In this document: piece after piece, positions 11,102 to 22,299 of the stretch
Numbering within the stretch: the stretch's first letter is position 1
Layout: each line of letters opens with the position of its first letter
From: an uncultured Pelagibacteraceae bacterium
GTDB lineage: Bacteria > Pseudomonadota > Alphaproteobacteria > Pelagibacterales > Pelagibacteraceae
Direction: 5' to 3'
DNA length: 64,000 nt
NCBI GenBank assembly: GCA_902527215.1
Contig: CABZOF010000002.1
Coordinates: forward strand, 124,001-188,000
Notes under the pieces: model-generated
Seen by the model: the letters and a program-made list of their open reading frames with translations, nothing else
Database searches by the model: none
Told to the model about the DNA's origin: nothing
Position numbers and translations under genes: made by a program

Positions 11102-11223
11102 AATTTCAATTAAACCAAAAAAACAAGAGACTTTTATTCATTATCGGAATTGTTGTTTTAATTGAACTCTCAGGATATGGTTTTTTTGCTTCTCTATTTA
11201 GACTGATAGGCTCAGTAAGTTAA
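11098..11223 (+). CDS. 41-residue single-span membrane protein
   Basis: This short ORF lies exactly between the two glycosyltransferases. It starts with the ATG of an ATGA overlap with the upstream stop (11098-11101) and stops in a TAATG overlap with the downstream start (11221-11225), so all three are in one coupled chain. It has a basic N-terminus (KFQLNQKNKR), one hydrophobic helix (LLFIIGIVVLIELSGYGFFA) and a short tail. I know no family for it. The position suggests an accessory subunit of the glycosyltransferase pair; it is too small to be a GtrA-type flippase. Confidence 0.65.
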   Translation: MKFQLNQKNKRLLFIIGIVVLIELSGYGFFASLFRLIGSVS

Positions 11224-12092
11224 TGAAAATAGTAATTCTAATTCCAGTCTTTAATGACTTTAAATCTGCATCAAAACTAATTGAAGAAATTGATATTAAT
11301 ATTTCTGAACTTAAAGCAACATTTTCAATAATAGTAGTGAATGATGCTTCAACAGACGAAAAAATTTTAGAAACAAAAAATCTAAATAATATTAAATCAC
11401 TGAAATTAATAAATATGAGAAATAATAGAGGTCACGCAAGATGTATTGCAGCAGGACTAAAACACATCTCAGAAAATGAGGAATTTGATTATGTTATTCC
11501 CATGGATGGTGATGGAGAGGATAGACCTGAAGAAATAAAAAATTATGTAGAAAAAATTGAAAACTATCCCAATAGAACGATCGTTGGCGAAAGAGTTAAA
11601 AGATCAGAAAGTTTTATTTTTAAAATCTGTTATTTTTTACACAAATTAATTACTTACACTTTTACTGGTAAATTTATAAAGTTTGGAAATTTTACTTGTC
11701 TCACAAAACAAACTGTTAAAAAATTAATTGAAGAAAAAGCAACTTGGAGTAGCTTTTCAGGTTCTCTTGCAAAAACAGAGAGTAATTTAATTAAATCTCC
11801 ATCAATAAGAGGTTTAAGATATTTCGGTCCTTCGAAGATGAGTTTTGTTAATTTGATAAAGCATTCTTTAGCCATTATTGCTGTCTTTAAAACAGGTGTA
11901 ATTTTTAGATCAATAGCTTTTTATGCAATATACTTAATAATAATTGCTGATTATATAAGTATAATTACAGCAATACCTCTTGCTTTAATTATTATATTTG
12001 GTTTAGTTATTTTAAAAATATCAGGAAGAGAAAATATGACTGAGTTTAATAATTCTTTAACAAATATTTCAGATATTGACATTTTAAAGTAG
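11223..12092 (+). CDS. GT2 glycosyltransferase, polyprenyl-phosphate sugar synthase type
   Basis: The cytoplasmic GT-A domain (about 1-200) starts with KIVILIPVFNDF, has VVNDASTD (38-45) for nucleotide binding and the metal-binding PMDGDGED with Asp95/Asp97. Two hydrophobic segments follow (about 225-265), as in GtrB/DPM1-like enzymes that load a sugar onto undecaprenyl phosphate. Paired with the ArnT-like transferase upstream, it probably makes the lipid-linked donor that the transferase uses. Sugar identity is unknown. A 36-base gap separates it from the following exported-protein genes, with no terminator seen. Confidence 0.82.
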   Translation: MKIVILIPVFNDFKSASKLIEEIDINISELKATFSIIVVNDASTDEKILETKNLNNIKSLKLINMRNNRGHARCIAAGLKHISENEEFDYVIPMDGDGEDRPEEIKNYVEKIENYPNRTIVGERVKRSESFIFKICYFLHKLITYTFTGKFIKFGNFTCLTKQTVKKLIEEKATWSSFSGSLAKTESNLIKSPSIRGLRYFGPSKMSFVNLIKHSLAIIAVFKTGVIFRSIAFYAIYLIIIADYISIITAIPLALIIIFGLVILKISGRENMTEFNNSLTNISDIDILK

Positions 12093-19999: not shown

Positions 20000-21277
20000 T
20001 TAGGCTCTAATCGTTGGTAGTAAATAGAAATCAGCTGTATCTATTTTGGAAGAATGCTCTCTTCTCATGTTCCATCTTTTTTGAACACCAGCACTAGCAA
20101 GACTTAGAGTAGATCTTCCATATCGATAGTTCGTATTATCAATAGACTTCATTAAACCCTTTATTTTCTCATCTTTTTCAGAAGAAAATAGGTTCTTGCT
20201 GCGATCTTCATTGGATAAACCAGTCAGCATTACACCTGCTTTTTGGTAACGATAGCCATTTTTAAAGATAGAGTCTAAAGCAACTAAAGCAGTTTTAACT
20301 ATTTCAATACTATTATTTGTTGAAATTGCAAAATCTATGGTCTTTGAGTTTGAATAATATCCAAATCTACTTTGAAAAGGACTTGTTCTAACAAAAACTG
20401 TAATTGACTTTGCAATTAAAGACTCAGATCTTATTTTTTCAGATGCATTTAAACAATAGTTTGCAACTGCTTCTTTTAATTCTTGATATTTCTCAATTCT
20501 TTGACCAAAAGAACGAGATACAACGCAGCTTTTTCTTTTTGTTTGCGTTGTCTCTAAATCAATACAAGGAACTCCCCTTAACTCCATCGCAGTTCTTGAA
20601 CCCAAAACATTAGAATTTTTCTTTATCCATGTATTTGATTTATTCTTTAGTTGCTTTGCATTATAAATCCCATTTTTGTGATAAAACTTTGTTAATTGTC
20701 TTCCAACACCCCATACATCATTAATTTCAACTTTTTCTAATATGGGATCAATATTTTCAATTCCTATTAAACTTGTTACACCTGATTTTTTTTTCTTTGC
20801 AATATGATTTGCAACTTTACTTAAAGTTTTTGTTTTAGCAATACCAATACTAGTTGGAATACCTGTCCACTTTAAAACTGTTTCTCTAATTTCTCTTCCA
20901 ACCTTTTCAACCTCATCATCTGAAAAGTTTGATAAATCTAGAAATGCTTCATCGATAGAATATACTTCGATGGCAGAGTTAAATCTTTTTAATGTTCTCA
21001 TTACTCTTCTAGATAAATCTCCATATAAAGAATAATTAGAGGAAAAAACTTCAACTTTGTTTTTAATAATAATATCTTTTGCTTTGAAGTAAGGTTCTCC
21101 CATTTTAATACCTAAAGCTTTAGCTTCAGTTGATCTTGAAATTATACAACCATCATTATTAGATAAAACTACAACAGGTTTTTTTCTTATTTTAGGATTG
21201 AATAATCTTTCACAAGAAACATAAAAAGAATTACAATCAATAAGTGCTATTTTTTTAGTATACTGAATGGATGACAT
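20000..21277 (-). CDS. umuC: DNA polymerase V catalytic subunit (Y-family)
   Basis: UmuC carries out mutagenic translesion DNA synthesis in the SOS response together with processed UmuD. The palm motifs are [16 protein letters not shown] (11-26, metal Asp14) and [11 protein letters not shown] (106-116, Asp109/Glu110), followed by thumb and little-finger domains and the typical C-terminal region ending with WNMRREH. The length of 425 is full. Its start overlaps the end of umuD by 23 bases, so both are co-translated from the SOS-box promoter. It converges on the polysaccharide-active operon with no bases between the stops. Confidence 0.95.
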
Positions 21278-21650
21278 AAGTTACAACTCCCCAAATAAAT
21301 ATATCTTCATCTTCGTTAATTAAAATTCGATCTGTAAATTCTTTAGAGCCTGATGTTAAAAATTTTTTATCTCTTTCTTGAACTAAACTTTTAACAACTA
21401 GTTCATCATGAACATTTGCAATAACTGTTGAGAAATTTTTTGGTGTTAAACTCTTATCAACAACTAATAGATCGCCATCATTAATTCCCACATCCACCAT
21501 TGATTTTCCTTGAACTCTTATGATGAAAGTTGCTGGAACATTTTTGATTAAATGAATATTTAAATCGATGTCTTCCTCAATATAATCCGTAGCAGGGGAT
21601 GGAAAACCCGCGCCAGCTTTATGTAAGTAGTAAGGTATCGTTAGCTTCAT
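21255..21650 (-). CDS. umuD: UmuD-type S24 self-cleaving protease
   Basis: UmuD is cleaved in a RecA-stimulated autolysis to give the active Pol V subunit. In this 131-residue protein the cleavage site is Ala14-Gly15 in [15 protein letters not shown], the nucleophile is Ser50 in [10 protein letters not shown] and the general base is Lys87 in HDELVVKSL, matching the Ser/Lys dyad. No DNA-binding domain is present, so it is UmuD rather than LexA. A perfect alphaproteobacterial SOS box lies five bases before the start codon, and recA lies 3.4 kb away on the other strand. Confidence 0.94.
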
Positions 21651-21654
21651 AAAT

Positions 21655-21669
21655 GTTCTTATTTTGTTC
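21655..21669 (-). promoter_or_regulatory. LexA (SOS) box of umuDC
   Basis: Read on the coding strand the site is GAAC-N7-GAAC (GTTC at 21655-21658 and 21666-21669 on the + strand), an exact match to the alphaproteobacterial LexA operator. It ends five bases before the umuD start codon, so a bound repressor would block initiation at a start-proximal promoter. Confidence 0.82.
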
Positions 21670-21726
21670 TAATTAATATCTAAGTTATTCAATAGTGTCA
21701 ATCAGGTTGTATTTTGAGTCTGTAAC

Positions 21727-21786
21727 TGAATCAAAAGTGAATCAAAACGTGAACATCGAAACCACATGTTGTATACATGTGGATAA
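21727..21786. promoter_or_regulatory. Direct repeats, palindrome and DnaA box between umuD and GFA gene
   Basis: Two exact copies of TGAATCAAAA (21727-21736, 21738-21747; 11-base period) are followed by a partial third (TGAAC, 21750). Then comes a perfect inverted repeat CCACATGT-N5-ACATGTGG (21762-21769, 21775-21782) whose right arm runs into TGTGGATAA (21778-21786), an exact DnaA-box match on the minus strand. It may control the divergent umuD and GFA genes; a DnaA link is inference. Confidence 0.5.
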
Positions 21787-21816
21787 CTTTAACAATAAAT
21801 AGTTTGAATATAATAA

Positions 21817-22299
21817 ATGGAAAAAAAAGAGAGCTTAACAGGAAGATGTATTTGTGGTCAGGTTAAGTATAGAATTACCGAGAAGCCTCTATTCACCCAA
21901 GCTTGCCATTGCAAAGATTGTAAAATTATAACTGGGTCTTCTTATGTTATTAATACTAGCGTTCTAGACAATACATTAATTATAGAGGGTGATATTTCGT
22001 CAACTGAACTTAAAACAGGTAGTGGAGCTACCTCAAGAGCTTATTTTTGTAACAAATGTGGTACTTATATTTATACTGATTATGCTACGGCAGTTGGTCG
22101 ATCAACAGTTAGAACTAAAACTTTAGATAATTCCGAAAACTTTCCTCCTGAAGCGCATATATTTACAAAAGATAAAGATCCATGGTTGAAACTTACTGAT
22201 GATGCAAATTGTTTTGAAAAAATGTATGATTTAAAAAATACTTGGCCAAAAGAAAGTTACGAAAGATATAAAAATTATTTAAAAGATAATAAAAGATAA
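21817..22299 (+). CDS. GFA/CENP-V fold zinc protein 1
   Basis: 160 residues of the glutathione-dependent formaldehyde-activating enzyme-like family (DUF636). Zinc ligands follow the family order: GRCICGQVKY (Cys11, Cys13), QACHCKDCK (Cys30, Cys32, Cys35) and YFCNKCGTYIY (Cys-x2-Cys near 79-82). True formaldehyde-activating activity is shown for only a few members, so the enzyme role is open. A second, shorter GFA protein follows 19 bases later, so these form a pair. The upstream region holds repeats and a DnaA-like site. Confidence 0.85.
   Translation: MEKKESLTGRCICGQVKYRITEKPLFTQACHCKDCKIITGSSYVINTSVLDNTLIIEGDISSTELKTGSGATSRAYFCNKCGTYIYTDYATAVGRSTVRTKTLDNSENFPPEAHIFTKDKDPWLKLTDDANCFEKMYDLKNTWPKESYERYKNYLKDNKR

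What the first reader, a model, noticed from the sequence alone, without database searches (positions are those of the whole stretch)
21727..21786. Iteron-like repeats, palindrome and exact DnaA box in one 60-base stretch
Two exact 10-mers at an 11-base period plus a partial third, an 8-bp-arm perfect palindrome, and TGTGGATAA sharing its arm. This combination is seen at replication or copy-control regions and at DnaA-regulated promoters. A SOS-associated regulator or even an origin-related role is possible.
Basis: partly seen in the sequence, partly recalled or inferred. Interest (0 to 1): 0.5.

Follow-up and report, generated by a model that had tools for sequence, protein, structure and literature searches.

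The report
Conserved SAR11 DnaA-box and GANTC-repeat element
A roughly 80-base stretch beside a DNA-damage gene in an abundant kind of ocean bacterium, listed in databases as a small RNA, looks more like a stretch of DNA read by the cell's replication-starting protein and its DNA-methylation system, and its core is kept nearly unchanged among relatives.

Summary
In detail: 10-mer repeat at 11 bp (21727/21738), perfect 8-bp-arm palindrome (21762-21782), exact DnaA box TGTGGATAA (21778-21786). It is part of a known object, Rfam RF01827 'SAR11_0636 sRNA' (21705-21794, +, 107.1 bits). It is not the origin: cumulative GC skew turns nearer dnaA in four sampled relatives.

Comparison across Pelagibacteraceae changes the reading. 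Conserved are five short blocks 11-12 bp apart (GGTTG, GAGTC, GAATC, GAATC, GAACAT), then TGTGGATAA after a 19-21-nt spacer whose sequence varies between genera. Three blocks are GANTC, the CcrM target; a CcrM-type RAMA domain and GcrA are in 19 of 19 genomes searched. The stems of the RNA model weaken outside the genus (P1 89 to 65%, P3 90 to 55%, P2 98 to 82% of cells paired). Copies also lie away from umuDC, by mraZ/rnpB or between convergent genes.

Best reading: a DnaA- and GANTC-methylation-addressed DNA element, probably tying a cell-cycle event to replication-fork passage. DNA rather than structured RNA is moderately supported; the mechanism is inferred and untested.

The parts
21705..21758 (+). 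54-nt core of the element: blocks GGTTG (21705-21709), GAGTC (21716-21720), GAATC (21728-21732), GAATC (21739-21743), GAACAT (21751-21756), starts 11, 12, 11 and 12 bp apart
   Evidence: 59 distinct cores; A1 uses 50 of the 59; strongest period 11.75 bp among the 30 cores from outside the genus, 0 of 5000 column shuffles and 48 of 5000 block shuffles reach it; coordinates
21716..21743 (.). three GANTC (CcrM target) sites; the only place in the 64-kb window with three GANTC starts within 40 bp
   Evidence: 78 GANTC in the window against 170-193 in 5 dinucleotide shuffles
21759..21777 (+). 19-nt spacer, near-fixed length (19-21 nt in 85 of 87 distinct elements), sequence not conserved between genera; here it holds the left palindrome arm
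21778..21786 (+). exact DnaA box TGTGGATAA (TTATCCACA on the minus strand)
   Evidence: exact in 72 of 87 distinct elements, at most one mismatch in 82 of 87
21762..21782 (.). palindrome CCACATGT-N5-ACATGTGG, containing the P3 hairpin of the Rfam model; weakens outside the genus
21705..21794 (+). Rfam RF01827 SAR11_0636 'sRNA' match, 107.1 bits (gathering score 67)
21655..21669 (.). GTTC-N7-GTTC beside the umuD start; alphaproteobacterial LexA box (motif identity recalled)
   Evidence: the same motif within 120 nt of the core in 68 of 87 distinct elements
21673..21701 (-). predicted umuD promoter: -35 TTGACA (21696-21701), 17-bp spacer, -10 TATTAA (21673-21678), read by eye
   Evidence: inference
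21255..21650 (-). umuD-like gene, Peptidase_S24 (PF00717)
20000..21277 (-). umuC-like Y-family polymerase gene (PF00817, PF11799, PF13438)
21817..22299 (+). right-hand neighbour, GFA family gene (PF04828); this side varies between relatives

Best explanation
The element is a double-stranded DNA regulatory site rather than a structured RNA. A phased array of short blocks on one face of the helix, three of them CcrM methylation sites (GANTC), lies at a fixed distance from one DnaA box. Most likely DnaA and a reader of GANTC methylation (GcrA is the obvious candidate) assemble on it; passage of the replication fork makes the sites hemimethylated and changes the complex, so that a cell-cycle or damage-linked event (firing of a flanking promoter such as umuDC or mraZ, or local binding/release of DnaA) follows fork passage. 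Shown here: sequence, phasing, conservation, GANTC content, DnaA box, presence of GcrA and CcrM-type genes, position away from the skew minimum, copies away from umuDC. Inferred: protein binding, methylation, and the output.
For: Invariant or near-invariant blocks with a period of 11.5-11.75 bp. In block 2 the N of GANTC is the only variable position of the five: A55/T2/G2, against 59 of 59 at the other four; other copies show GATTC, GAGTC and GACTC. TGTGGATAA exact in 72 of 87 and at offset 19-21 in 85 of 87, counting up to two mismatches. GANTC is 0.45x of the mononucleotide expectation in G012 and G082 and 0.72x in G240, and 78 against 170-193 in shuffles of the window. RAMA domain 19 of 19 and GcrA 19 of 19 genomes. 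Rfam stems weaken outside the genus: P1 65%, P3 55%, P2 82% of cells paired, and 0 of 29 outside rows keep all P2 pairs; RNAalifold -0.52 kcal/mol, covariation term 0. Found beside a GT2 gene with umuCD between (G226) and without (g2, g4).
Against: No binding, methylation or expression data. Over 47 rows the Rfam structure pairs slightly more than shuffles (80.9% against 79.8%, 1 of 500; covariation score 44 of 500; 5 pairs with changes on both sides in 12 cells, shuffles 4.0 and 8.6), clearly more than slid versions (31-45%), and four P2 pairs of one helix never vary, so RNA is not excluded. Blocks 1 and 3 are nearly invariant at N too, so a sequence-specific protein without methylation would fit. 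Exact DnaA boxes elsewhere are about as frequent as base composition predicts (2, 2 and 3 in 400 kb; 9 in 800 kb of G226, element copies included), so scarcity is no argument. RAMA is not by itself proof of CcrM, and the G240 match is partial with a stop; the GcrA search also rang in one archaeal control. In G205 and G240 copies lie between convergent gene ends with no promoter to regulate. mraZ-side copies are degenerate, several without a good DnaA box, and at varying distance from the gene.
Confidence: 0.5

Rival explanations
1. It is a small non-coding RNA, as Rfam and Meyer et al. 2009 propose, transcribed divergently from umuD and possibly SOS-controlled through the shared LexA box.
For: RF01827 match at 107.1 bits; within the genus the stems hold well (P1 89%, P2 98%, P3 90% of cells in 18 rows); slight excess of paired cells over shuffles; the element keeps its place while neighbours change, which Meyer et al. 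took as a sign of a separately transcribed RNA (section read); copies between convergent genes; CAACC/CAACT partners for GGTTG/AGTTG in the genus and in some g4 copies, by eye.
Against: No conserved terminator seen by eye; outside the genus no row keeps all P2 pairs and P1/P3 fall to 65% and 55%; Meyer et al. themselves report no covariation in P2; conservation follows the helical turn; the DnaA box is kept where its hairpin partner is not.
Confidence: 0.27
2. It is an upstream activating/operator site of the umuDC promoter alone, bound by an unknown regulator.
For: umuD is the nearest left-hand frame in all 90 genus loci examined, 60 of them fetched by the element and not by umuD; the core ends 3 bp from the predicted -35. 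umuD, umuC, recA and lexA rise in a SAR11 strain during infection by phage HTVC027P (PMC12753301, passages), so the promoter is regulated.
Against: Occurs without umuD or umuC in the roughly 3-kb loci of genera g2, g4 and g5 (tblastn, none; the rest of those genomes was not searched for umuDC), and as extra copies near mraZ or between convergent genes.
Confidence: 0.12
3. It is (part of) the chromosomal replication origin.
For: Iteron-like repeats with a methylation site plus a DnaA box in the order seen at some origins (recalled); no DnaA-box cluster in the fetched dnaA loci, so the true origin was not found.
Against: Cumulative GC-skew minimum lies within about 130 kb of dnaA in four genomes at coarse sampling, and the main copies are 0.17-0.39 of the genome away from dnaA; one box only; 1-3 copies per genome.
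Confidence: 0.03
4. It is a DnaA-titrating or DnaA-reactivating site (datA/DARS-like) gated by GANTC methylation and placed mid-replichore.
For: DnaA box at fixed geometry; each of eight single-contig genomes has some copy 0.24-0.291 of the genome from dnaA (band chosen after seeing the data; in G226 that copy is the mraZ one).
Against: One DnaA box, against several in datA and DARS (recalled); shared gene order could produce the positions, and with one genome per genus random placement gives this in 0.4% of trials before correcting for the chosen band.
Confidence: 0.15

Closest known systems
Rfam RF01827 SAR11_0636 (Meyer et al. 2009, PMC2704228: section 10 and passages seen)
   Same: Same sequence; 107.1 bits over all 90 model positions. 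G226 has 1,308,759 bases, the length I recall for HTCC1062, and its element at 622437-622526 falls in the published intergenic region 622388-622552.
   Different: Described as a three-stem RNA; here the stems weaken outside the genus and a phased GANTC/DnaA-box layout accounts for the conserved columns. Extra copies were found that the Rfam model missed.
CcrM/GcrA-controlled GANTC promoters of Caulobacter (PMC3667746: abstract start and passages; PMC3973325: abstract start and passages)
   Same: GANTC sites in an intergenic region; RAMA-domain (CcrM-type) and GcrA genes both encoded.
   Different: Three sites phased at 11-12 bp and a DnaA box at fixed distance; not tied to one promoter.
E. coli oriC left half, 13-mers with GATC followed by DnaA box R1 (recalled)
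   Same: Short repeats carrying a methylation site, then TGTGGATAA in the same orientation.
   Different: GANTC not GATC; one box; not at the skew minimum.
Vibrio cholerae chromosome II origin, RctB 11/12-mer iterons with GATC plus a DnaA box (recalled)
   Same: 11-12-bp phased methylatable repeats with one DnaA box.
   Different: No secondary chromosome or RctB was looked for; the element occurs in 1-3 copies on one chromosome.
E. coli datA / DARS (recalled)
   Same: Chromosomal DnaA-box sites outside the origin; a mid-replichore copy recalls DARS2.
   Different: Only one DnaA box in most copies; IHF/Fis sites not searched.

Membership tests
RF01827 SAR11_0636 RNA family | covariance-model score above gathering | tested here: met
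   107.1 against 67 bits
RF01827 SAR11_0636 RNA family | base-paired stems P1-P3 kept across relatives | tested here: inconclusive
   Kept within the genus (89, 98, 90% of cells, 18 rows) but weak outside (65, 82, 55%, 29 rows; 0 rows with all P2 pairs); RNAalifold finds 4 invariant pairs, no covariation; small excess over shuffles
RF01827 SAR11_0636 RNA family | transcribed as an independent RNA | not testable with these tools
   no expression data held
Chromosomal oriC | GC-skew inflection at the site | tested here: not met
   (coarse sampling: 400 kb of three genomes, 800 kb of a fourth)
Chromosomal oriC | cluster of DnaA boxes | tested here: not met
   one box downstream of the core; a second exact box upstream in 3 of 87 distinct elements, all g4
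CcrM/GcrA-controlled site | conserved GANTC in intergenic DNA of a genome with CcrM and GcrA | tested here: met
   CcrM judged by its RAMA domain only, supported by PMC3973325 for SAR11 (passage)
CcrM/GcrA-controlled site | methylation and GcrA binding in vivo | not testable with these tools
   needs a methylome or ChIP
CcrM/GcrA-controlled site | promoter output depends on methylation | not testable with these tools
   needs reporter assays
datA/DARS class | multiple DnaA boxes with IHF/Fis sites | tested here: inconclusive
   one DnaA box in most copies; IHF/Fis sites not searched

The most novel reading that the evidence does not exclude
RF01827 is not an RNA but a family-wide, replication-coupled epigenetic switch of SAR11: a phased CcrM-site array with one DnaA box, kept near mid-replichore, that reads fork passage through hemimethylation and sets DnaA activity or cell-cycle transcription in bacteria with very few regulators.
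Probability: 0.25. Interest if true: 0.8.

Novelty: new variant of a known kind. Interest (0 to 1): 0.55.

Why it matters
SAR11 is among the most abundant bacteria and has few transcription factors (recalled); how it times replication and division is poorly known. A DnaA-box plus GANTC element found with strong scores in 11 of the 12 genera would give a concrete, testable handle on that, and would correct a database entry that now labels the sequence an sRNA.

Tried and rejected
Origin: rejected on GC skew and box count; the curves of G082 and G240 are shallow and noisy. dnaA loci of 14 genomes: no box cluster; the true oriC was not located. Other exact DnaA boxes: of those printed (7, 2 of them element copies; 4) none but the element copies has the array beside it; four further G226 boxes (532615, 1090615, 1201285, 1250430) were not looked at. 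Other GANTC triples within 40 bp (4 printed) lack the core; their coding status was not checked. Viral carriage: 0 matches to the core+box pattern in viral contigs. Other Alphaproteobacteria: 15 of 385 class genomes, 5 of them Pelagibacteraceae, the other 10 at E 5.9e-5 to 0.0099, about what chance gives for most; the best (L463) has three phased GANTC after GTTGCATTTT and was only printed. Loosened pattern (one mismatch): one-mismatch hits are no more frequent than the reversed control, so only exact hits were used; one exact hit (G243:190158) has no R1 match and is probably chance. Literature: 'SAR11_0636' in one paper, 'RF01827' in none, 'SAR11'+'CcrM'+'DnaA' in two, neither about this element by title; a search for SAR11 cell-cycle work listed only unrelated papers. 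PMC5069720 (passages) has mapped SAR11 transcription starts, but its dataset could not be opened here. I make no claim that the DNA reading is unpublished beyond these searches.

Selection of rows: A1 used 50 of 59 distinct cores; A2 used 47 of 87 distinct elements, 18 of the genus and 29 outside. L112 (first GANTC shifted by one base, box in the other orientation) was left out of A2. One search uses all 87. Mended after a check against the calls: the coordinates of the third unit, LexA box and promoter; the stem claim (weakened, not lost, outside the genus); the membership row on stems from 'not met' to 'inconclusive'.

Full report
The observation. Against 8 dinucleotide shuffles of the window they are individually ordinary (4 tandem 10-mers against 0-2; 36 palindromes against 19-31; 2 exact DnaA boxes against 0-1), so the case rests on conservation.

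What it is called. Covariance search identifies window 21705-21794 (+) as Rfam RF01827, SAR11_0636 sRNA, 107.1 bits over all 90 positions. The source paper (PMC2704228; section 10 read and passages seen) lists it among less well-supported motifs, reports that no P2 base pair has covariation, and suggests a separately transcribed RNA because neither neighbour is strictly conserved. Its SAR11_0635, an S24-like peptidase, corresponds to the umuD-like gene here.

Surroundings. umuD (21255-21650, -; Peptidase_S24) and umuC (20000-21277, -; IMS family) read away to the left. By eye the umuD promoter is TTGACA-17-TATTAA on the minus strand (21696-21701 and 21673-21678), followed by GAAC-N7-GAAC (21655-21669) next to the start codon, the LexA box of Alphaproteobacteria (motif recalled). 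The core begins 3 bp upstream of that -35. SAR11 umuD, umuC, recA and lexA rise during infection by phage HTVC027P (PMC12753301, passages). To the right is a GFA-family gene. In 90 genus loci (some from the same genomes; 30 fetched by umuD, 60 by the element) the nearest left frame is umuD in all 90, while the right frames fall into 9 BLAST clusters.

Distribution. A pattern for two repeats with up to 2 mismatches occurs in 146 of 201 genus genomes (27 of 30 good ones), once each. RF01827 matches 245 of 297 family genomes at E<=0.001, and 99 of 297 reach the Rfam cut-off. A sequence-only model of the 54-nt core (R1) matches 26 of 26 chosen genomes at E<=0.05; 25 have E below 1e-9, and G207 (genus g7) only 0.0066. 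In the order it matches 274 of 347 genomes; the only two matches outside the family have E about 0.0097, and how many of the 347 lie outside the family is not shown. In the class 15 of 385 match, 5 of them in the family. Viral contigs: 0.

Anatomy. In 59 distinct cores the invariant parts are TTG of GGTTG, GA-TC of the second GANTC, GAATCAAA of the third and GAACA. Block starts are 11, 12, 11 and 12 bp apart, and the information profile of the 30 cores from outside the genus has its strongest period at 11.75 bp (0 of 5000 column shuffles, 48 of 5000 six-column block shuffles). The DnaA box, with up to two mismatches, follows the core after 19-21 nt in 85 of 87 distinct elements (exact 72, one mismatch 10, two mismatches 3). 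The spacer has near-fixed length but no conserved sequence across genera.

RNA or DNA. On 47 rows the Rfam structure has 80.9% paired cells against 79.8% in shuffles (1 of 500 reach it), a covariation score of 0.119 against 0.112 (44 of 500), and 12 cells with changes on both sides against 8.6 (48 of 500); slid versions pair 31-45%. So there is some signal for RNA. Split by relatedness, the 18 genus rows pair at 89% (P1), 98% (P2) and 90% (P3), the 29 outside rows at 65%, 82% and 55%, and none of the 29 keeps all P2 pairs. Column pairs 23-40, 11-55 and 29-34 are unpaired in 18, 25 and 11 of 47. RNAalifold finds four invariant pairs, -0.52 kcal/mol, covariation term 0. Those four pairs are the GA and TC letters of two consecutive GANTC units, which complement each other automatically. 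I weigh this as favouring DNA, not as proof against transcription.

CcrM and GcrA. GANTC is the CcrM target; PMC3973325 (passages) states that SAR11 has a CcrM homologue and that GANTC is on average at least two-fold under-represented in alphaproteobacterial orders except Rickettsiales. I find 0.45x in G012 and G082, 0.72x in G240 (mononucleotide expectation), and 78 against 170-193 in shuffles of the window. The RAMA domain typical of CcrM and GcrA are each in 19 of 19 genomes searched; among 14 controls RAMA rings in Caulobacter only and GcrA in Caulobacter and, oddly, Sulfolobus; the G240 RAMA match is partial with a stop. That GcrA binding depends on this methylation in Caulobacter is the title finding of PMC3667746 (abstract start and passages), which does not mention SAR11.

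Not the origin. At coarse sampling the cumulative GC skew is lowest within about 130 kb of dnaA in G012, G082, G240 and G226 and shows no turn at the element; the curves of G082 and G240 are shallow. The main copies lie 0.17-0.39 of the genome from dnaA in eight single-contig genomes. Each of the eight has some copy at 0.24-0.291; random placement gives this in 1 of 200,000 trials, or 0.4% with one genome per genus, but the band was chosen after seeing the numbers and gene order is shared. This is a lead only. Exact DnaA boxes elsewhere are about as frequent as base composition predicts.

Away from umuDC, and extra copies. In genera g2 and g4 the element follows a GT2 glycosyltransferase or a transporter, and tblastn finds no umuD or umuC in 20 roughly 3-4-kb loci (18 from g2, g4 and g5, plus L266 and L267); those genomes were not searched whole. 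A relative of that GT2 (46-50% identity) lies at G226:620001-620741, followed by umuC and umuD and then the element at 622437, and at window 11223-12092, further to the left. The site is therefore probably orthologous with and without umuCD. Weaker copies lie between rnpB and mraZ: RNase P RNA confirmed by Rfam in G012, G217, G226 and G208, inferred from matching flanks in G308, G155, G202 and G213; mraZ was read as a frame in L254 and L116. They face the gene start as at umuD but at varying distance. G205 and G240 carry copies between convergent gene ends. A purely umuD-regulatory role is therefore unlikely.

Conclusion. The most economical reading is a DnaA- and GANTC-methylation-addressed DNA element of Pelagibacteraceae, about 0.5 overall. 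That it acts as DNA rather than as a structured RNA I put at about 0.7; the specific output is inference.

Noticed in passing
L254, L256, L258, L269 (RNase P RNA by Rfam); L257, L261, L270, L271 (by flank): Diverged copies of the core between the RNase P RNA gene and mraZ, head of the division gene cluster, next to TGGGA repeats that look like MraZ boxes (recalled).
   Followed up: partly
L267 (G240:C1:1234092) and L266 (G205:C1:736537): Copies with an exact DnaA box between the 3' ends of convergent genes; the G240 copy was missed by RF01827.
   Followed up: partly
L463 around 1500-1560 (G812, another family of the class): GTTGCATTTT followed by three GANTC 11-12 bp apart, resembling the SAR11 core (E 5.9e-5).
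   Followed up: no
window 21655-21669: LexA-type GTTC-N7-GTTC box directly beside the umuD start codon; its spacing to the core differs between relatives.
   Followed up: partly
L096, L097, L102 (genus g4): A second exact DnaA box starts 19 nt upstream of the core, in the end of a transporter gene, so two boxes flank the array.
   Followed up: no
window 1662: The only other exact DnaA box in the window; no GANTC triple there.
   Followed up: no
right side of the element in genus loci: Gene content on the DnaA-box side is variable (9 clusters in 90 loci) while the umuD side is constant; possible gene-turnover boundary.
   Followed up: partly
L263, L265, L268: Short third copies without the exact DnaA box beside an unidentified sequence containing ttttctttcgtg; no Rfam match in the two searched (L263, L268).
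   Followed up: no
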